From assembly GCF_000275865.1 (NCBI RefSeq), contig NZ_CM001555.1, forward strand, positions 310,001 to 374,000: DNA of 64,000 nt, written 5' to 3'. Below the pieces are notes generated by a model. It ran no database searches, was not told the origin of the DNA, and saw only the letters and a program-made list of their open reading frames with translations. The DNA comes from Methanofollis liminatans DSM 4140. Lineage in GTDB: Archaea; Halobacteriota; Methanomicrobia; Methanomicrobiales; Methanofollaceae. Positions within the stretch are counted from its first letter, which is position 1. Each line of letters starts with the position of its first letter. Below, piece after piece: positions 30,394 to 41,020 of this stretch. The position numbers were made by a program, and so were the translations under genes.

Positions 30394-30738
30394 TCAGGAC
30401 ATTTTTTTGAGGATCTCCTCGATCCTGTCCTTCAAATGAGGGAGATCGGAGCGGGCCGTCTCCCAGATGATCCTCATGTCGACGCCGAAATAATGGTGGA
30501 TGAGTTTGTCCCGCATCCCTGCGACGGCACGCCACCCCACCTCGGGATGCGCCTCCCTGAATTCGGCCGGGAGCTTTTTCACCGCTTCCCCGATGATTTC
30601 GAGGTTCCTGATCACGGCATCCTGCGTCTTTGTATCGTGCAGGAATTCCTCAAAACCGATTGACTGGGTATAACGCTCTATGCGGTCGATGGCTTCGAGA
30701 ATATCGTTGCAATAGAGAAGAGGGTCCGGCTCAGACAT
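30394..30738 (-). CDS. HepT-type HEPN toxin (DUF86)
   Basis: A 114-residue HEPN protein with the RNase/AMPylation motif R76-x4-H81-x-Y83 (RDKLIHHYF), the exact RX4HXY arrangement of HepT toxins. In characterised MntA/HepT pairs the Tyr is adenylylated by the MNT partner, which neutralises the RNase. Its start overlaps the MntA stop by 8 bp. It belongs to the left copy of a duplicated hicB-hicA-mntA-hepT block; the right copy of hepT has been lost. Confidence 0.92.
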
Positions 30739-31024
30739 AGGCCGTCTCGCCCGCGATCCGCTCCCTCATCCTCGGTTTGATGGCGTCGGGCGTCACCAGG
30801 TCGACCGGGGCGCCGAGCCGATCCGAGAGGTAGTCTTCCAGCTCCATGAAGGTGAAAAAGCCGACCGGCCGGGAGAACTCGACCAGGATATCGATGTCGC
30901 TTGCGGGCGTCTGCTCGCCGCGGGAGACCGAGCCGAAGACGCCGATCCTGGCGACGTGGAAGCGGACTTCGAGGTCGTCTTTAAGGGTGGCGAGGAGGGC
31001 GAGGACGCTCTCACGGGAGTGCAT
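30731..31024 (-). CDS. MntA-type minimal nucleotidyltransferase antitoxin
   Basis: A 97-residue nucleotidyltransferase with GSVSRGE (residues 31-37) and SDIDIL (catalytic D43 and D45), the full MNT active site. It is expected to AMPylate the adjacent HepT. A TTTATCC TATA-like element about 27 bp upstream predicts a leaderless message. A decayed paralogue lies at 32657-32930, where GS has become GP and the frame is broken. This copy looks intact. Confidence 0.92.
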
Positions 31025-32231: not shown

Positions 32232-32369
32232 TCAGATCCTGAAAAGAGTTGCAAGTTTTGCGTTGACCTCTGCCCTGAGGTCATCGTCGAGTTCGCCGAG
32301 TTCGCCTACCATCAGGTCTTTCAGGACGGTTGCGATCTTGTCCAGCCTGATCACGGAATCGACCTTCAT
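32232..32369 (-). CDS. 45-residue ORF coupled to the 63-residue ORF
   Basis: The frame starts MKVDSVIRLDKIATVLKDL and ends ATLFRI. It looks helical, with a regular acidic centre (GELGELDDDLRAEVNAKL). Its ATG overlaps the stop of the preceding small ORF as ATGA, a coupling typical of genuine gene pairs. Family unknown; small-protein partner or antitoxin are possible. Confidence 0.6.
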   Translation of the reverse strand: MKVDSVIRLDKIATVLKDLMVGELGELDDDLRAEVNAKLATLFRI

Positions 32370-32557
32370 CGGTACACGACCTTCAGGTCCCTGACGGCGT
32401 AGAGGTCTGGCTCCTCCTCAAGAAACGCGGAGAGCGACCGCTCGGAGAGTTTCATCATGGCTGCCGTCTCCCTCTCGTGGAGGAGTTCGTCGATCTTTTC
32501 GGTGAGCATCCTGATGCTCTCCTTGATCTCCCTGACGTCCGCTTCGATGCCGGTCAT
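32366..32557 (-). CDS. 63-residue coiled-coil-like ORF
   Basis: The frame starts MTGIEADVREIKESIRML and has a heptad-like helix (about residues 4-30, ADVREIKESIRMLTEKIDEL) followed by MMKLSERSLSAFLEEEPDLY and a basic end. I do not recognise a family. The coiled coil plus a C-terminal binding segment resembles the organisation of small antitoxins. It overlaps the 45-residue ORF by 4 bp and follows the decayed mntA copy. Confidence 0.6.
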   Translation of the reverse strand: MTGIEADVREIKESIRMLTEKIDELLHERETAAMMKLSERSLSAFLEEEPDLYAVRDLKVVYR

Positions 32558-32656
32558 GGTGGGGCCTCCCGTTATGCAGATGATCGGTGGGACGGGCTAT
32601 CAAACTTTGCGTTCGGGATCGGATGGTCTGTATGAGGTGTGGCGGACGGTTTCGGG

Positions 32657-32930
32657 CATCGGCTGTTTCGCCCGTGATCCTCTCCCGCATCGCCGGTTTG
32701 ATGGCGTCGGGCGTCGCCGGGTCGTTCGGAGAGGTATTCTTCCAGCTCCATGAAGGTGAAATGTGCCGACCGGCCGGGAGAACGCAGGCCGGGATGTCGA
32801 TGTCGCGTGCGGGCGTCTGCTCGCCGCGGGAGACCGGGCCGAAGACGCCGATCCTGGCGACGGGGAAGCGGACCGCAAGGTCGTCTTTGAGGGTGGCGAG
32901 GAGGGCGAGGACGCTCTCACGGGAGTGCAT
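32657..32930 (-). pseudogene. decayed mntA paralogue (right copy), with hepT start remnant
   Basis: It starts like the intact mntA ([18 protein letters not shown]) but GSVSRGE is GPVSRGE and SDIDIL is RDIDIP. A frame change then scrambles the middle, and the segment equivalent to LGAPVDLV is missing, before PDAIKPAMRERITGETA restores the original frame. A few codons resembling the hepT start (MPETV) overlap the end, but the rest of hepT is absent. Catalytic activity is not expected. Confidence 0.8.
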
Positions 32931-32985: not shown

Positions 32986-33210
32986 TCATTTCAGATCTTC
33001 GAGTTCTTCCCTTTCAATTCCGGCCTGTCTGAGGATTTCAAGAAGAGTCCCTGCAGGCAGATCTGGTGCATGAACCGGGACAGTCACGCGTCTTCCCGTT
33101 TCCGGATGACGATAGAGGTGGTGACTGCCCCGTGTTCGTGCAAGGACGAATCCTTTTGTTTCAAGGATTTTGATGACTTTTTGCGGAGAGAGGACGGGAA
33201 CCTCAGGCAT
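32986..33210 (-). CDS. hicA: HicA-type mRNA interferase toxin
   Basis: A 74-residue double-stranded RNA-binding-like toxin with QKVIKILETKGFVLARTRGSHH, where the catalytic His is in GSHH (residue 30), and the C-terminal VPVHAPDLPAGTLLEILRQAG. All features of an active HicA are present. Its ATG overlaps the stop of hicB, the cognate antitoxin gene, but that hicB has a frameshift. A second, almost fully deleted copy lies at 31069-31092. Confidence 0.92.
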   Translation of the reverse strand: MPEVPVLSPQKVIKILETKGFVLARTRGSHHLYRHPETGRRVTVPVHAPDLPAGTLLEILRQAGIEREELEDLK

Positions 33211-33437
33211 ATGCTTCGACCGTCAGGGTATATTCGAGGTTATCCTCCTCGGTCGGGATCTTTTCGCCCCTGTCGGTCAGGTCTTCCAGGTACACCTCGA
33301 TCGCCTCCTTTGCCATTGCGATCGCCTCCTCGATCGTGCCGCCGAAGGTGACGCAGCCCGGGAAGGGTTGGTTCTATAACTGTATGCCTGCCTTTCGCCT
33401 CTTTCCGGAGGAGGATACGGTGCTGCAGAGGTTTCAT
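33203..33437 (-). pseudogene. hicB: hicB antitoxin gene with a frameshift
   Basis: The first part reads MKPLQHRILLRKEAKGRH and continues to PTLPG, as in HicB; the second part, in another frame, reads CVTFGGTIEEAIAMAKEAIEVYL and continues to TVEAYA. The two halves join at LPG/CVT, so one extra base near 33353-33361 breaks the gene. The C-terminal half is well preserved, which suggests a recent break, a read error or recoding. It overlaps the intact hicA start. Confidence 0.8.
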
Positions 33438-33494
33438 CGCGTCCCTTTTAAGAGTACAACTACCCGCTGACGCATAAGAAACACCGCCCGAATC

Positions 33495-33505
33495 CTTTAT
33501 CTCCC
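33495..33505 (+). promoter_or_regulatory. TATA box of the winged-helix/YwgA-like/MazF operon
   Basis: ATCCTTTATCTCC lies about 40 bp before the ATG at 33542 in the 104-bp space divergent from hicB. Confidence 0.5.
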
Positions 33506-33541
33506 CCTGCTCCAACATCTACTCAAAGTTTAAAGTCGCTT

Positions 33542-33883
33542 ATGTCGGATGATCTGATAGCAATCGTGGAAGAATCCGAGGACGTGAACAGCACCCTCAT
33601 CTCCCGGGTGCGCCTGGAGATACTCTGGGCGCTCTCCGAGCTCGGCGAGGACGGGGCCACCGCACGGCAGCTCAAAGCCGGGCTGAACCTGAGCGACGGC
33701 GTGCTCTACGCAAACCTCAAGAAACTTGTCGAGATGGGATACCTCCGCTCCGAGAAGGTGACGCTTGAAGGGAAGGAACTGGAGCTCTGCGCCATCACCC
33801 CGGAAGGGCTCGGCGAGTGGCGGCGTGTCCGGGGCTGGCTCTGCAAACTCCTCGGCTGCGAAGGTGATATCTGTGAACGATAG
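33542..33883 (+). CDS. winged-helix regulator heading a putative toxin-antitoxin operon
   Basis: A 113-residue PadR/MarR-like winged-helix protein. The helix-turn-helix is GATARQLKAGLNLSDGVLYANLKKLVEMGYL and the wing is RSEKVTLEGKELELCAITPEG. The C-terminus WLCKLLGCEGDICE is Cys-containing. It is followed, with an 11-bp overlap, by a YwgA/Panacea-like gene, and 1 bp after that by mazF, so it is likely the autoregulator of the three-gene operon, in place of the DNA-binding domain antitoxins normally carry themselves. Confidence 0.85.
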   Translation: MSDDLIAIVEESEDVNSTLISRVRLEILWALSELGEDGATARQLKAGLNLSDGVLYANLKKLVEMGYLRSEKVTLEGKELELCAITPEGLGEWRRVRGWLCKLLGCEGDICER

Positions 33884-34403
33884 AAGCAAAGTCATTGCCT
33901 GTTTCCGAGAAGCTGGGTTCCGTATGGATAAAGGCCAGTTCGAGCACCGGCTCATCGCCCAGAAGCTTGTTTATCTGCTGAAGCTGAAGGGTGTCGAATT
34001 TGCGTATCCGTTTCATCTCTACGTCCGGGGACCCTACTCCCCGGACCTTGCACGGGAGTACTACCAGCACGCCGACGAGTTTTCCCGGTGCGAGACGGAG
34101 CGCGCGCTCTCCCCCGTCGAAGCGGACTCTGTTGCCGGGCTCACCGGCCTCTTCGGCAAAAGCCCGTCCCTGCTTGAGATCGGGGCGACTTACGGGTATC
34201 TGGCCTACGAGATGCACCAACCGCCGCAGCAGGCATACCGGGCAGTCCGGAGGATGAAGTCCTTCTACTCCAATGAGCAGATCGTCAAGGGTATCAACCG
34301 GGTGAAGCAGTACCTCTTTGCCCCCACTGACGAAGAGAAGGCGGTGCTTGACTCCGAGCTGCAGGAGTGGCAACGAGCCGGTATCCAGTCGATGAGGCAT
34401 TAG
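33873..34403 (+). CDS. YwgA/Panacea (DUF4065)-like protein, candidate antitoxin for MazF
   Basis: A 176-residue protein with a GTG start at 33873 supported by AGGTGA five bases upstream. The block EHRLIAQKLVYLLKLKG, then FHLYVRGPYSPDLAREYYQHADEF, matches the YwgA and DUF4065 (Panacea/SocA) pattern of a Q-K-L-x-Y-L helix followed by a YGPYS-type loop. Panacea domains are known as interchangeable antitoxins for many toxin types. It is sandwiched between a winged-helix gene and mazF, with overlap and a 1-bp gap. The family assignment is by eye and needs a profile search; the antitoxin role is inference. Confidence 0.65.
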   Translation: MNDRSKVIACFREAGFRMDKGQFEHRLIAQKLVYLLKLKGVEFAYPFHLYVRGPYSPDLAREYYQHADEFSRCETERALSPVEADSVAGLTGLFGKSPSLLEIGATYGYLAYEMHQPPQQAYRAVRRMKSFYSNEQIVKGINRVKQYLFAPTDEEKAVLDSELQEWQRAGIQSMRH

Positions 34404-34404
34404 G

Positions 34405-34740
34405 ATGCGCCGGAGCAGAGGCGATATCTGGTTCGTCGATCTTACCGACGCACGGGGGCACGAGCAGAGCGGGCTGCGTCCTGCCGTGGTGCTCGCCGTC
34501 GCCTACGGGGGTATGACCATCGCGGTCCCGCTGACGACGACCCCGGTGGCTTTTTCGTTCCCGCACACCCACGGTATCGAGAAGAGTTCACAGAACGGGC
34601 TGATTTCCAATAGTGCGGCGCTGGTCTTCCAGATTGTTGCCCTCTCGGAAGATCGTTTCGTCCGGAAGATCGGGCGGTGCTCGGTCGAGGATATGGAAGC
34701 AATAAGCGTTCTTTTGAAAGACCTGTTGGCGCTGGAATAG
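34405..34740 (+). CDS. MazF/PemK-type mRNA interferase toxin
   Basis: A 111-residue protein with the MazF N-terminus RGDIWFVDL, the core GHEQSGLRPAVVLAVAYGG and the following MTIAVPLTTTP, including the conserved Arg (R25) and the Thr-rich strand of the RNase site. The C-terminus RFVRKIGRCSVEDMEAISVLLKDLL is also typical. No MazE-type antitoxin is adjacent; instead it lies 1 bp after the YwgA/Panacea-like gene, which is the natural candidate to neutralise it. Confidence 0.9.
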   Translation: MRRSRGDIWFVDLTDARGHEQSGLRPAVVLAVAYGGMTIAVPLTTTPVAFSFPHTHGIEKSSQNGLISNSAALVFQIVALSEDRFVRKIGRCSVEDMEAISVLLKDLLALE

Positions 34741-35562: not shown

Positions 35563-35897
35563 TTATTCGAGGATCTCTCCCCGCACCGTCAAAAACACCG
35601 GCCCCCGCACATCCACCTTCCTCTTATTATCCGTAATATACCGCATCGCCCATTCCGGTATCCTCAGATTCACGTCAGAAGGCGTCTTCGCCATCTTCAC
35701 CTGCACGACCACGCCCTCGCCGCAGCGGGCCGCCTCCTCGATCCTGGCCGCGGCGAGATTCGCCGCCGCCGTCAGGTACGAGATCCCGGTCGGGGCGCCG
35801 TTCGCCCGGACGTCCGCGAACTTCTCGGTGTCCGGGACGCCGAGCACCTTGCCCTCCTGCACGAAGACCTCGTTGAAGGTCGCGGGGCCGCAGAGGC
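35563..35897 (-). pseudogene. orphan sepS 3' fragment 1 (SepRS C-terminal domain)
   Basis: These 335 bp encode the last 110 or so residues of SepRS ([19 protein letters not shown] through [13 protein letters not shown]), nearly identical to 39419-39753. Homology to sepS stops at 35897; beyond it the sequence is the spacer shared with 38448-38570. The reading frame is still open, but there is no catalytic domain and no start. It came from a tandem duplication whose breakpoint lies inside sepS. Confidence 0.88.
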
Positions 35898-36021
35898 AAT
35901 CGAAGCGCTGGACACTTTCGGCACCGTTCTTTTTTTTAGTGGGCATGAGGGGTCCCGATCCGTGACATACGCCACTGTAGGGTCTCATCCCCTTCCCGGT
36001 CCGGCGAGATCGACGCGACAG
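35898..36021. repeat. duplicated spacer, copy 1
   Basis: This spacer between the sepS fragment and the promoter box is closely repeated at 38448-38571 (shared blocks include ATCGAAGCGCTGGACACTTT and CCGGCGAGATCGACGCGACA). It is upstream promoter DNA of the lipoprotein gene carried along in the duplication. Confidence 0.75.
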
Positions 36022-36053
36022 GTAAACGATTGCGTCAGAAGTCGTATATATTA
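36022..36053 (+). promoter_or_regulatory. shared 22-bp promoter box plus TATA, copy 2
   Basis: Positions 36022-36043 are identical to 1529-1550 over 22 bp. TATATATTA follows at about 36045-36053. In the duplicated unit this promoter originally served the lipoprotein gene; now an inserted AT-rich gene (ATG 36222) lies behind it. Confidence 0.7.
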
Positions 36054-36221
36054 AAACAGCCATATTTGGTGATGTGGAGATCAAACTGGTCTCCCGGCGG
36101 GGGTCCGCCGTGTTTTCGAGACGCTGACGGTGCCCCGCACTGCCCGGAGGCATGACAATGTACTCTTTTCTAATACTTAAGGGTGTGTTTCGTTCCTCCG
36201 AGAAAGACTGGAGGTAAACGA

Positions 36222-37280
36222 ATGAAAACAAAACTTTATACTGGGATTCCTCTGTTTCTGGTTATCCTACTGGTCTGTACTGTGGTCCCTCCTGGCGCAG
36301 CTGAGAATCAAACGTTGGCTCCTATAAACATGAGTCAACCTTATGTCTATGAGATTCGCGATCTGAGCAACCCAATTACTGAATCTGAAATTATAGATTT
36401 GCGGAGCAACCTTATTTCAAAGCAAAACCATTTATTCCGTTCAACCGAAGGGGATGGCCCAACTCTTGCCTATGCAAATCCGAGGATCTTAGATAATGGA
36501 ACAATCGTGGCTTATGGGTTTTATATTGATCCTGAAGGTACGACTCACCAATTGATCGGTGTTGTCAATGACGAAAGTTGTATTGACGACATGTATGAGA
36601 TAGCCAATCAATGGCTTGAAAATATGAGTAACGAACAGAATCTTCTATCGTCCTCAGATGTTCAGGATGGTTGGGATTGCTTCTCACAGGATGACCTCTA
36701 TTATGAAGCCGAGCCGTATGGGTTAGTTGAGAACAACTATGAACTGTATCGCAATATCGAAGAAGATGATCCAGATCAGGACTGTTATGCAGTTAAACAA
36801 TTTTTTTCAATGGAACCTGGATTTCATAGGTGGAGAGAAGATAACTGGAGTAAATGGATTAGTGAATCGGGTTTTTGTTGGAACGACTGGTCATATGCCC
36901 CCAACTCCCTTAGTTCCTCGTTACATAACCGCCAACCTTTCGGAACCTATGTGGGACCAACAACCCTTCAGTTATCTCTTTATCCGGAACCATGTATGTC
37001 TTGGTCGCTAATCCTTGATTCTGTCTCCATTGAGGATAACAGCGATCCGGTTACTCAAACAGCACGATGGGATATGTCATTTAACTCTGCCGAAGCGCAA
37101 AAAACAATACAGGGGTGGAGAGTAGGGAGTTCTATATTAGCAGACGTTCCTAACGTTGCCGGGGAGTATCATCTGACACGTCTATATGTTGATGGAAAAT
37201 TTGTTGATCCCACTTCACCATGGTATGATCGCCAGTATCGGGATCTCAGAACCGCTTGGGATTTCTGGGTTGATTATTAA
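36222..37280 (+). CDS. exported protein of unknown function in an AT-rich insertion
   Basis: A 352-residue protein with a signal peptide ([20 protein letters not shown] to about residue 26, ending PPGAAE) and an acidic, Trp/Tyr-rich ectodomain ([49 protein letters not shown]) with five Cys residues. A strong GGAGGT lies 6 bases before the ATG. I recognise no family. Codon usage is clearly AT-richer than in flanking genes. It sits between promoter-box copy 2 and lipoprotein copy 1, where the other repeat unit has nothing, so it is a net insertion of about 1244 bp. Confidence 0.85.
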
Positions 37281-37345
37281 ATGATTACTCAATCATTTCT
37301 AATCTTTATTTTGATTCCCATTGAGCAAAAGTATGGGTGACAACC

Positions 37346-38065
37346 ATGCACACATCATATTTCATACCCGGACTCTTTCTTCTTCTCATCTGCACCGCAG
37401 GCTGCAGCGGACTTACGGACCGGACCTTCACCCTCCCTGCCGAAACATCGGGTCCGCCGCTCACCGCCCTCTGGGAGGGGGCCGTGGAGGCGACCGGCAT
37501 CGACGAAGAGAGCGGTCTGGTGAGCGAATTCACCCTGCTCAGGGGAGGGGACGGCCATATCGTCCTGATGGACCTCTCTTTCTCCGGTGACGTGAACGGA
37601 GAGCGACGACACTTCAATGCCTACCGCCGGCAGAGCGGCACCGTGACGGTCAGACCGATCGCAGAACGTTCTCCCGCGGGCCTCCGCCATCCCGGCCGGG
37701 TCTTTAAGGATCTCGAAGCCCTCGGTTCGAACACCTCGTTCTGGGAGAACGACTGGAGCATTCACCTGAAAAATATCCGGGGCGCGACCTACAGGAGTGA
37801 ATCCTTCCCGGTGTATCTCCTGGAGAACGGAACCCTCGTCTCTCTCGATTGGGTCTCGACCGCGGGTGCGCCGTCGCAGGTCTATTACTTCTCCTTCTGC
37901 AAGACCGGGGTCTTCGACGGGTCCGCAGCGAGTGAGCAGGGAGGCGGTGCCACGGCATTCGTCGGCCGGGGCGAGTGTTCCGTCATCTTCACGCCGGAAG
38001 AACTGGAAAAAACGTCGTACCAAAAAATGGATGGGGGAGAGGACGATCTCGTGTCCCCCTCATAA
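37346..38065 (+). CDS. duplicated lipoprotein, copy 1
   Basis: A 239-residue lipoprotein: hydrophobic N-terminus and lipobox CTAGC with candidate lipidated Cys20, then a beta-rich domain (TLLRGGDGHIVLMDLSFSG, NDWSIHLKNIRGATYRSES, PSQVYYFSFCKTG). It differs from copy 2 at 28 of 239 positions by my count, most of them in the N-terminal 60%; the 3' end is almost identical. A GTG three codons upstream is an alternative start. Its original promoter was displaced by the insertion at about 36065-37336, so it may now depend on read-through. Family unknown. Confidence 0.85.
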   Translation: MHTSYFIPGLFLLLICTAGCSGLTDRTFTLPAETSGPPLTALWEGAVEATGIDEESGLVSEFTLLRGGDGHIVLMDLSFSGDVNGERRHFNAYRRQSGTVTVRPIAERSPAGLRHPGRVFKDLEALGSNTSFWENDWSIHLKNIRGATYRSESFPVYLLENGTLVSLDWVSTAGAPSQVYYFSFCKTGVFDGSAASEQGGGATAFVGRGECSVIFTPEELEKTSYQKMDGGEDDLVSPS

Positions 38066-38112
38066 AACAGCGGCGAGGTGTCGGGCCCGGCACGAGAGGG
38101 TCGCCGGCCCGT

Positions 38113-38447
38113 TCACTCCCCGATCTCCGCCCGCACCGTCAAAAACACCGGCCCCCGCACATCCACCTTCCGCTTATTATCCGTAATATACCGCATCGCC
38201 CATTCCGGTATCCTCAGATTCACGTCAGAAGGCGTCTTCGCCATCTTCACCTGCACGACCGCCGCCTCCCCGCACCGGGCCGCCTCCTCGATCCTGGCCG
38301 CGGCCAGGTTCGCCGCCGCCGTCAGGTAGGAGATCCCGGTCGGGGCGCCGTTCGCCCGGACGTCCGCGAACTTCTCGGTGTCGGGGACGCCGAGCACCTT
38401 GCCGTCCTGCACGAAGAGCTTGTTAGAGGTGGCGGGACCGGAGAGAC
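38113..38447 (-). pseudogene. orphan sepS 3' fragment 2 (SepRS C-terminal domain)
   Basis: A second 335-bp copy of the sepS 3' end with exactly the same boundaries as fragment 1. It has drifted more at its upstream edge ([16 protein letters not shown] against [16 protein letters not shown]). The frame remains open but lacks the catalytic core. It is the junction half of the 1306-bp tandem duplication. Confidence 0.88.
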
Positions 38448-38571
38448 AATCGAAGCGCTGGACACTTTCGACACCGTTCTTTTTTGTAGCGGGCACGAGG
38501 GGTGCCGATCCGTGACATGCGCCACTGTAGGGTCTCATCCTCTTCCTGGCCCGGCGAGATCGACGCGACAG
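38448..38571. repeat. duplicated spacer, copy 2
   Basis: Copy of 35898-36021, lying between sepS fragment 2 and promoter box copy 3. Confidence 0.75.
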
Positions 38572-38604
38572 GTAAACGATTGCGTCAGAAACGGTATATA
38601 TTGA
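38572..38604 (+). promoter_or_regulatory. shared promoter box plus TATA, copy 3
   Basis: Nineteen bp of the box (GTAAACGATTGCGTCAGAA, 38572-38590) are preserved, followed by TATATATTGA at about 38595-38604. The lipoprotein ATG is 48 bp beyond the TATA, giving a leader of about 25 nt. Confidence 0.7.
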
Positions 38605-38642
38605 AACGGACATATTTCAGGCAGCGGCGACCGGAGGCGCGA

Positions 38643-39753
38643 GTGACAACCATGAACACACCATATCTTATACCCGGACTCTGTCTTCTGCTCATCTGCA
38701 CCGCAGGCTGCAGCGGACTTACGGACCAGACCTTCACCCTTCCTGCCGGGGTGTCGGGTCCGCCGCTCACCGCCCTCTGGGAGGGGGTCGTGGAGGCGAC
38801 CGGCATCGACGAAGAGAGCGGCATGGTGAGCGACTTCACCCTGCTCAGGGGAGGGGACGGCCATATCGTCCAGATGGAGCTCTTGTTCTCCGGTGACGTG
38901 AACGGAGAGCGCCGGTACTTCGAGGCCTCCCGCCGGCAGAGCGGCACCGTGACGGCCAGGTCGATGACCGGCCTCTCCCCCGCGGGCCTCCGCCATCCCG
39001 GCCGGGTCTTCGGGGATCTCGAAGCCCTCGGTTCGAACACCTCGTTCTGGGAGAACGACTGGAGCATCCACCTGAAAAATATCCGGGGCGCGACCTACAG
39101 GAGTGAATCCTCCCCGGTGTATCTCCTGGAGAACGGAACCCTCGTCCCTCTCGATTGGGTCTCGACCGCGGGTGCGCCGTCGCAGGTCTATTACTTCTCC
39201 TTCTGCAAGACCGGGATCTTCGACGGGTCTGCAGCGAGTGAGCAGGGAGGCGGTGCCACGGCGTTCGTCGGCCGGGGCGAGTGTTCCGTCATCTTCACGC
39301 CGGAAGAACTGGAAAAAACGTCGTACCAAAAAATGGATGGGGGAAAGGACGATCTCCTGTCCCCCTCATAAAACGGTGGCGAGGTGTCGGGCCCGGCACG
39401 AGAGGGTCGCCGGCCCGTTCACTCCCCGATCTCCCCCCGCACCGTCAAAAACACCGGCCCCCGCACATCCACCTTCCGCTTATTATCCGTAATATACCGC
39501 ATCGCCCATTCCGGTATCCTCAAATTCACATCAGACGGCGTCTTCGCCATCTTCACCTGCACGACCACGGCCTCGCCGCACCGGGCCGCCTCCTCGATCC
39601 TGGCCGCGGCCAGGTTCGCCGCCGCCGTCAGGTAGGAGATCCCGGTCGGGGCGCCGTTCGCCCGGACGTCCGCGAACTTCTCGGTGTCGGGGACGCCGAG
39701 CACCTTGCCGTCCTGCACGAAGACCTCGTTGAAGGTCGCCGGGCCGCAGAGGC
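38643..39753. repeat. 1306-bp tandem repeat, unit 2 (merges into sepS)
   Basis: The second unit runs from just before the lipoprotein start to 39753 inside full-length sepS, where the duplicated segment ends. Beyond 39753 the sequence is unique sepS coding DNA. Confidence 0.8.
38652..39371 (+). CDS. duplicated lipoprotein, copy 2
   Basis: A 239-residue lipoprotein (lipobox CTAGC, Cys20), paralogous to 37346-38065 at roughly 88% identity by my count. This copy retains the complete promoter with the shared box. It is convergent with full-length sepS, 47 bp stop to stop, which is presumably the ancestral arrangement before the duplication. An upstream in-frame GTG (38643) is possible. The function is unknown; the shared box suggests coregulation with the ABC-NEW3 operon. 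Confidence 0.87.
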   Translation: MNTPYLIPGLCLLLICTAGCSGLTDQTFTLPAGVSGPPLTALWEGVVEATGIDEESGMVSDFTLLRGGDGHIVQMELLFSGDVNGERRYFEASRRQSGTVTARSMTGLSPAGLRHPGRVFGDLEALGSNTSFWENDWSIHLKNIRGATYRSESSPVYLLENGTLVPLDWVSTAGAPSQVYYFSFCKTGIFDGSAASEQGGGATAFVGRGECSVIFTPEELEKTSYQKMDGGKDDLLSPS

Positions 39754-41020
39754 GCGAGTTCTCCTCCGGCTCCTCCACAAAGACTCGGATCTTCCTGCCC
39801 GCGAACGCCCCTTCATACGCGAGGAACGAGCACGGCCCGGAGGCGGCGGCGTTCGCCGTCGCCGTGGCGACGATCGCCGATACGAGCCGCCGCCCCTCGA
39901 CGGTCCGCGGCTCTTCGCGCAGGCCAATCGCCGCCGCGATCTCGCGGTCGGTGAGGGTCCGGGGGAAGAACTGCGGGTGGGTGAGCTGCCGAACGTCGTT
40001 GGACTTATAGAGGATCATCGCCAGGCGCTCGACGCCCAGGCCCAGGTTCATCACCGGGACGCCGACGCCGTACTCGCCCAGGGCCGAGGGCGAGTACATC
40101 CCGAAAGTGGCGACCTCCACCCACCCGATCTCGGGGTGCTTCGCATACACCTCGGTCTGGGTGTCGGGAATATAGTATTTCGAACGCTTCTCGTCGGGGC
40201 GGAACTGGAAGTCCTCGAAGCCGAAGGCCGAGAGCAGGGCCTCGGATACGGCTTTCCCGTCATCGATCGTCACGTCCTCGCCCGCGATGATGCACGAGGC
40301 CGAGTGATAGGTCATCAGGCGGGTCGGCCCCTCCTCCTGCTCCCGGCGGAAACAGCGGTCGATCGAGAAGAGGCGGATCGGGTGGGCGTAGTGCTCCCAC
40401 ATCGCCCCAAGAGAGAGGAACCACCCGCTCGTCATGTGCGAGCGCAGCGTCGTCCTGGACGACTCAGGGGCGAGGTTCCGAAACTCGGGGAAGACCGAGT
40501 CCAGGATGTGGACCACGAGGCCGTCGTCGATCGCGAGGTCGGCGGCGATCTCGTGGGTCAGTTCGTCGCCGTCGATCGTCGCCTTCTTGTAGGCGTGGAA
40601 GGTCCGCTGGAGTTTTTCCTTCACCGTCTCGGGGGCGACGGCGAAGTTCTCCTCGTGCGACGCGATGATCGCCATGATCTCGTCGAGCTGTTTATCCGAG
40701 ATCCCCACGTTCGGCCGCGGCAGCCCGCCCAGGTAGAAGACCCGGTCCAGGACGGCGCTCGCCTCGGGGCCGAACTGCCGGTAGACGTCCGATTCCTCGA
40801 TCATCACCGGGACGCGTGCCTCGTCGAAGCCCATCGAGAGGTAGACCTCGCGGAGGCGCTGGATCGTCTCGGCGATCGGGTGCGGCGCCGCCCGCCGGTA
40901 GGCCTTCCGCGGATAGGTCTCCGCAAGGGACGGGGGCGTCAGCACCTCGGGGCCCCGGTGCCACGCCGTTTCGAAATCGCTCCTTGACAGTTCCTTCCGC
41001 TCTTCTGGATCAAATCTCAT
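39419..41020 (-). CDS. sepS: O-phosphoseryl-tRNA(Cys) synthetase (SepRS)
   Basis: A 533-residue class II aminoacyl-tRNA synthetase that charges tRNA-Cys with phosphoserine, later converted to Cys by SepCysS. The N-terminus ([12 protein letters not shown]) and motif 2 region ([13 protein letters not shown], then [10 protein letters not shown]) and motif 3 ([15 protein letters not shown]) are diagnostic. The C-terminal domain begins at about residue 400 and ends [13 protein letters not shown]. Its ATG overlaps the taw1 stop by 4 bp; it is the last gene of prf1-argS-taw1-sepS. Its last 335 bp are duplicated twice downstream as orphan fragments. No sepcysS gene is in the window. Confidence 0.95.

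What the first reader, a model, noticed from the sequence alone, without database searches (positions are those of the whole stretch)
33542..34740. Winged-helix / YwgA-Panacea-like / MazF operon: possible three-part toxin system
MazF normally pairs with a MazE-type antitoxin. Here it follows, with overlapping or 1-bp-spaced genes, a PadR-like regulator and a protein with the QKLVYLLK and YVRGPYSPDL signature of YwgA/DUF4065 proteins. Panacea (DUF4065) antitoxins are known to neutralise unrelated toxins. A split system with separate regulator and neutraliser for MazF in a methanogen would be new to me.
Basis: partly seen in the sequence, partly recalled or inferred. Interest (0 to 1): 0.75.

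Follow-up and report, generated by a model that had tools for sequence, protein, structure and literature searches.

The report
MazF toxin module with DarG-like antitoxin
A methanogen carries a compact three-gene cassette (DNA-binding regulator, antitoxin, RNA-cutting MazF toxin) whose antitoxin belongs to no named family but resembles the part of DarG that blocks an unrelated toxin, and the same trio recurs across several groups of archaea.

Summary
Window 33542-34740 encodes a winged-helix protein (HTH_34), a 176-aa protein with no Pfam family (P2) and a good MazF (PF02452, 71.7 bits), overlapping or 1 bp apart. The trio is conserved in Methanomicrobiales and also in Diapherotrites, Micrarchaeota and a Thermoplasmatales MAG. 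Between genera, DNA similarity is essentially confined to a 1.25-kb cassette (33487-34740): promoter, palindromic operator and three genes. Genome comparison looks like a toxin-antitoxin system: intact trio-type MazF is not found without P2 next to it, while in 16 of 56 loci MazF is broken or gone and P2 and the regulator stay intact. One MAG keeps P2-MazF without the regulator. P2 is not a detectable member of Panacea/DUF4065. Profile comparisons and fold search place it with the C-terminal domain of DarG, which blocks DarT. Best reading: a split type II system in which the winged helix represses the operon and P2, a DarG-CTD-type antitoxin replacing MazE, neutralises MazF. Toxicity, binding and repression are untested. 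New variant of a known kind: three-gene systems with a separate regulator, and Panacea paired with MazF-like toxins, are published; this antitoxin family and archaeal MazF trio were not found described.

The parts
33495..33501 (+). TATA-like box (CTTTATC), conserved across the Methanoculleus-type loci; start of transcription expected about 25 nt downstream, inside the operator (inferred)
   Evidence: alignment of upstream regions; archaeal TATA spacing from general knowledge
33521..33536 (+). Imperfect palindromic operator ACTCAAAGTTTAAAGT, ending 5 nt before the start codon; a variant of the motif precedes the winged-helix gene in most other clades
   Evidence: the 18-nt site is unique in this genome at up to 2 mismatches
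33542..33883 (+). Winged-helix regulator, 113 aa (HTH_34); inferred operon repressor
   Evidence: 64.5 bits; dN/dS about 0.19
33873..34403 (+). P2, 176 aa: inferred antitoxin of the DarG C-terminal-domain superfamily, with a conserved C-terminal tail (about 151-176) that the relatives seem to lack
34405..34740 (+). MazF/PemK-type endoribonuclease toxin, 111 aa; R25 nearly invariant and T44 invariant in the family
33487..34740 (.). Cassette unit: the only long stretch of the region similar in DNA between this genome and four more distant genomes (apart from short HicB-region matches)

Best explanation
A split (tripartite) type II toxin-antitoxin cassette. MazF is an mRNA-cutting toxin (inferred from family, fold and conserved active-site residues). 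P2 is its cognate antitoxin: it replaces MazE and inhibits MazF by direct binding through a DarG-CTD-type helical core plus a conserved, trio-specific C-terminal tail (binding and the role of the tail are inferred). The winged-helix protein is a separate DNA-binding autorepressor: as a dimer it binds the palindrome that overlaps the start of transcription and controls the whole operon (operator shown by conservation, binding inferred). Translational coupling (11-nt overlap and 1-nt gap) puts antitoxin before toxin. When P2 falls, MazF is released and stops growth; the trigger, such as virus infection or loss of the cassette, is unknown.
For: Trio conservation across four archaeal groups. MazF family, fold and active residues. 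39 of 40 trio-type MazF hits of at least 100 bits in 199 genomes lie next to P2; the exception, in G008, is N-terminally truncated beside a P2 remnant. MazF broken or missing in 16 of 56 loci with intact P2 and regulator, by clearly different lesions where inspected; no locus with broken P2 and intact MazF, except one cut by a contig end. Two-gene P2-MazF without the winged helix in Ca. Methanofilum arcanum. P2 to DarG CTD: 15 of 28 members hit the DarG model, the window protein in its C-terminal part, Foldseek top hits are 7yk3 (DarTG complex) at probability 1.00 with everything else at or below 0.13, and hhalign chain 99.6% then 98.4%. DarG CTD blocks DarT by binding (PMC11481870). Operator motif. 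Cassette-bounded homology. Purifying selection, dN/dS 0.11-0.19.
Against: No experiment. A stop-readthrough model of P2-MazF gave pTM 0.67 with confident domains, which neither shows nor excludes an interface. P2 is net neutral to basic, so simple charge mimicry of RNA is not evident; two of the three archaeal DarG CTDs checked are basic too. In one genome MazF lies convergent to P2 (L053). The operator motif was not recognised in L050, L052-L055, L095 and L096. Direct hhalign of P2 vs DarG CTD is only 73.7%. Some MazF lesions lie in MAGs and could be assembly errors.
Confidence: 0.75

Rival explanations
1. The winged-helix protein is the antitoxin (DNA binding plus neutralisation, as in classic type II systems) and P2 is an accessory factor.
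For: Type II antitoxins often carry the DNA-binding domain; it is the first gene of the operon and conserved with the others.
Against: Ca. Methanofilum keeps P2-MazF with no winged helix next to it; P2, not the winged helix, resembles a known toxin-binding domain.
Confidence: 0.1
2. P2 is a proteolytic adaptor that delivers MazF to a protease, like SocA for SocB (type VI).
For: The superfamily is distantly linked to Panacea, which includes SocA (PMC8832971).
Against: Tested Panacea antitoxins neutralise without ClpXP or Lon and bind their toxins directly (PMC8832971); the nearer relative, DarG CTD, acts by binding.
Confidence: 0.1
3. The MazF-like protein is not a toxin but a regulated RNase with a house function, and the operon is an ordinary stress regulon.
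For: Low dN/dS in intact copies; no toxicity data.
Against: Patchy distribution (54 of 199 genomes), cassette mobility and the one-sided loss of MazF fit a toxin, not a house function.
Confidence: 0.05

Closest known systems
MazEF / PemIK type II toxin-antitoxin systems
   Same: Toxin is a bona fide MazF by profile and fold.
   Different: No MazE; the antitoxin is a 176-aa helical protein of another superfamily, and regulation sits in a separate winged-helix gene.
DarTG, C-terminal domain of DarG (PDB 7yk3)
   Same: P2 has its fold and distant sequence similarity; likely the same job, direct toxin inhibition.
   Different: No macrodomain, no DarT; the partner is MazF; P2 has an extra conserved C-terminal tail.
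Panacea (DUF4065, PF13274) toxin-antitoxin pairs
   Same: Distantly related core around QK...GPYS; published Panacea pairs include PemK/MazF-like toxins (PMC8832971).
   Different: PF13274 does not hit P2; the Panacea GPV motif reads GPY or GSY here; the remaining profile similarity is short.
Tripartite systems with a separate regulator (paaR-paaA-parE, omega-epsilon-zeta)
   Same: Regulator, antitoxin and toxin as three co-directed genes, as reviewed in PMC4803016.
   Different: Unrelated proteins; the published examples read here are bacterial and none has MazF.

Membership tests
MazF/PemK toxin (PF02452) | Profile score above the curated cut-off | tested here: met
   71.7 bits vs 23.1
MazF/PemK toxin (PF02452) | Active-site Arg and Thr (R25 and T48 in B. 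subtilis MazF; numbering from general knowledge) | tested here: met
   R25 in at least 90% of members, T44 invariant in alignment A2; equivalence with BsMazF T48 judged by eye
MazF/PemK toxin (PF02452) | RNA cleavage and growth arrest | not testable with these tools
   needs bench work
MazEF module | MazE-type antitoxin gene before mazF | tested here: not met
   neighbour is P2, no Pfam hit at E<=1; first gene is HTH_34
Panacea / DUF4065 (PF13274) | Hit to PF13274 | tested here: not met
   no hit at E<=1 for P2, and PF13274 not among hits at E<=0.1 for 28 members
Panacea / DUF4065 (PF13274) | Conserved GPV motif needed for neutralisation (PMC8832971) | tested here: not met
   GPY in most members, GSY in some
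DarG C-terminal domain superfamily | Sequence-profile relationship | tested here: met
   15 of 28 members hit the DarG model; A1-A5 99.6%, A5-A4 98.4%; direct A1-A4 73.7%
DarG C-terminal domain superfamily | Same fold | tested here: met
   7yk3 chains B and D, probability 1.00, TM 0.49, E 0.02
DarG C-terminal domain superfamily | Physical inhibition of the partner toxin | not testable with these tools
   readthrough fold model inconclusive
B. subtilis YwgA | Direct sequence match | not tested
Tripartite toxin-antitoxin system | Separate regulator gene in the operon, conserved with the pair | tested here: met
Tripartite toxin-antitoxin system | Regulator represses the operon promoter | not testable with these tools
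   only the conserved operator was seen

The most novel reading that the evidence does not exclude
P2 founds a third branch of a Panacea / DarG-CTD superfamily of interchangeable toxin-blocking domains: one ancient archaeal and bacterial fold that has been fitted to unrelated toxins (DarT, MazF, perhaps the neighbouring HD enzymes), here as a MazF-specific version that gained a C-terminal clamp and outsourced DNA binding to a winged-helix protein.
Probability: 0.4. Interest if true: 0.7.

Novelty: new variant of a known kind. Interest (0 to 1): 0.55.

Why it matters
It gives MazF a candidate antitoxin family that no profile library searched here names, in archaea, where few toxin-antitoxin modules have been worked out. 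It also connects three groups usually treated apart (Panacea, the DarT-blocking domain of DarG, and HD-linked stand-alone proteins), which makes the question 'how does one fold learn to neutralise unrelated toxins?' directly testable with small proteins.

Tried and rejected
P2 in plasmids, phages and viral contigs: no match. P2 vs PDB sequences: only weak NLRC4 matches (best E 0.0034), taken as chance. P2 vs Panacea by hhalign: 12%, membership rejected. Charge mimicry of nucleic acid: net charge is about neutral to basic in P2 and basic in two of three archaeal DarG CTDs, not informative. Complex prediction through a natural in-frame TGA readthrough (L082, table 4): pTM 0.67, inconclusive. tblastn for MazF remnants in a script returned nothing for any locus, a technical failure of that run; HMM search replaced it.

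Full report
Observation. Three co-directed ORFs lie at 33542-33883, 33873-34403 and 34405-34740, with an 11-nt overlap and a 1-nt gap. The first is a winged-helix protein (HTH_34 64.5 bits; PadR only 19.5 bits, below its cut-off), the third a MazF (PF02452 71.7 bits), and the second, P2, has no Pfam family at E<=1.

Conservation. P2 occurs in 54 of 199 genomes of the order, at E<=0.001 (some of these hits are remnants or distant relatives). A script with profiles of all three genes showed the same order and strand in nearly all complete P2 loci. A scan of 84,980 species genomes returned 40 loci, all archaeal: Methanomicrobiales, a MAG labelled only as Euryarchaeota, Diapherotrites (L091, L103), Micrarchaeota (L093, L096, L101) and a Thermoplasmatales MAG (L095), the last three groups with all three genes; in L093 MazF is split. 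The scan uses conserved peptide patterns, so remote bacterial relatives could be missed. Distances among the three genes correlate across 41 trios (r 0.89-0.91), and dN/dS in the Methanoculleus-type clade is 0.19, 0.16 and 0.11. The correlation shows joint inheritance, not interaction; one of the 41 (L067) duplicates a frameshifted locus.

Cassette. Against four more distant genomes (L208-L211), DNA similarity to the window in this region covers 33487/33497 to 34739/34740, that is promoter, operator and trio, apart from short matches in the HicB region upstream. In a sister species (L206) the flanks are shared too. One genome carries two copies (L017, L034).

Toxin-antitoxin logic. Forty trio-type MazF hits of at least 100 bits were found in 199 genomes. 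Thirty-nine lie next to P2, and the exception (G008) is N-terminally truncated beside a P2 remnant. Of 56 loci with complete P2 and winged helix and enough sequence downstream, MazF is broken or absent in 16: L008, L011, L018, L020, L023, L024, L026, L030, L032, L036, L037, L040, L042, L052, L054, L093. The script's length threshold counted five frameshifted or interrupted copies as intact (L011, L018, L020, L023, L052); they are recounted here from the coordinates and. The lesions differ where inspected: single-base deletions in L011 and L018, a 2-base insertion in L020, truncations in L008, L026, L032 and L036. No locus has a broken P2 beside an intact MazF; L105, cut by its contig end, cannot be judged. 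This one-sided decay is what a toxin with a surviving antitoxin gives.

Which gene neutralises? In Candidatus Methanofilum arcanum (L098), P2 and MazF overlap as a two-gene operon with no winged-helix gene upstream; the nearest upstream ORF is a short Phd-like one (judged by eye). So P2 and MazF can exist as a pair. This is one MAG. In L053 MazF is convergent to P2, an unexplained exception.

What P2 is. Fifteen of 28 members match the DarG model; for the window protein the match lies in DarG's C-terminal part. AlphaFold2 gives a confident fold (pLDDT 91.6, pTM 0.83), and Foldseek against the PDB puts DarG of the DarTG complex first (7yk3_B and _D, probability 1.00, E 0.02, TM 0.49) with everything else at or below 0.13. 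hhalign: P2 family vs stand-alone relatives 99.6%, these vs archaeal DarG C-terminal domains 98.4% over 154 columns, P2 vs DarG directly 73.7%, relatives vs Panacea 95.1% over 60 columns, P2 vs Panacea 12.1%. Three of the relatives lie next to HD-domain genes (L059, L061, L153; HD assignment by eye). P2 is therefore related to the DarT-blocking domain and is not a Panacea protein by test. The last 25 residues are conserved (0.57-0.66 per block), are poorly modelled on the core (pLDDT 55-73) and appear to be missing from the HD-linked relatives by length comparison, which suggests a partner-binding element (inference).

Regulation. Upstream of the winged-helix gene in most clades is an imperfect palindrome: ACTCAAAGTTTAAAGT in the window (33521-33536), ACTTTAAACTTTAAGT in Methanoregula-like loci, ACTTTGAAAATTGAAGT in Micrarchaeota L093. 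Shuffles seldom reach it in the euryarchaeal clades and L093 (p at or below 0.025 except L036 and L082, where the site lay beyond the 90 nt scored); it is weaker in L091, L103 and L101 and not recognised in L050, L052-L055, L095 and L096. The window's 18-nt site occurs once in the genome at up to 2 mismatches. The shuffles preserve single-base composition only, and the pattern was drawn from the same sequences. With a TATA-like CTTTATC at 33495-33501, transcription should start inside the palindrome (inference), as for a local autorepressor.

Mechanism and confidence. Shown by sequence: MazF family and fold, trio conservation, operator conservation, asymmetric decay, P2's relation to the DarG C-terminal domain. 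Inferred: toxicity, binding, repression, role of the tail. A readthrough model of P2-MazF gave pTM 0.67, inconclusive; its MazF half matches solved MazF structures.

Comparison with the literature. Panacea antitoxins pair with many toxins, PemK and MazF-like RNases included, bind them directly, and need a GPV motif (PMC8832971). DarG's C-terminal domain occludes DarT (PMC11481870; Deep et al. 2023, cited there and in PMC12170906). Separate regulators are known in paaR-paaA-parE and omega-epsilon-zeta (PMC4803016). Searches of the open-access library returned no description of this trio; most subscription papers were not searchable.

Noticed in passing
window 30394-31024 (-): HepT-like RNase (PF01934) and a MntA-type nucleotidyltransferase (PF01909) pair, with a decayed second copy of the nucleotidyltransferase at about 32418-32930; with HicA this makes a toxin-antitoxin island next to the trio.
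   Followed up: partly
window 32986-33316 (-): HicA toxin (PF07927, 76 bits) preceded by a shortened HicB-like ORF (33203-33316, 37 aa).
   Followed up: partly
window 32232-32369 (-): 45-aa ORF matching the C-terminal part of MazF (PF02452, 22 bits, below cut-off): probably a MazF remnant.
   Followed up: partly
window 35572-39727: Three copies of the 3' end of the O-phosphoseryl-tRNA synthetase gene (full gene 39419-41020, -), 95-96% alike, with a duplicated putative lipoprotein gene (37337, 38643) between them.
   Followed up: partly
L039, L041, L049, L082, L095: P2 and MazF lie in one reading frame separated by a single TGA in all five loci inspected; the possible readthrough product was used only for modelling.
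   Followed up: partly
L002 (own genome 762339-762647): A second MazF in the same genome sits behind an ordinary 65-aa antitoxin-like ORF, so both arrangements coexist in one cell.
   Followed up: no
L059, L061, L153: P2-like proteins next to HD-domain (dNTPase-like) genes in other archaea: possible partners of this domain other than MazF and DarT.
   Followed up: partly
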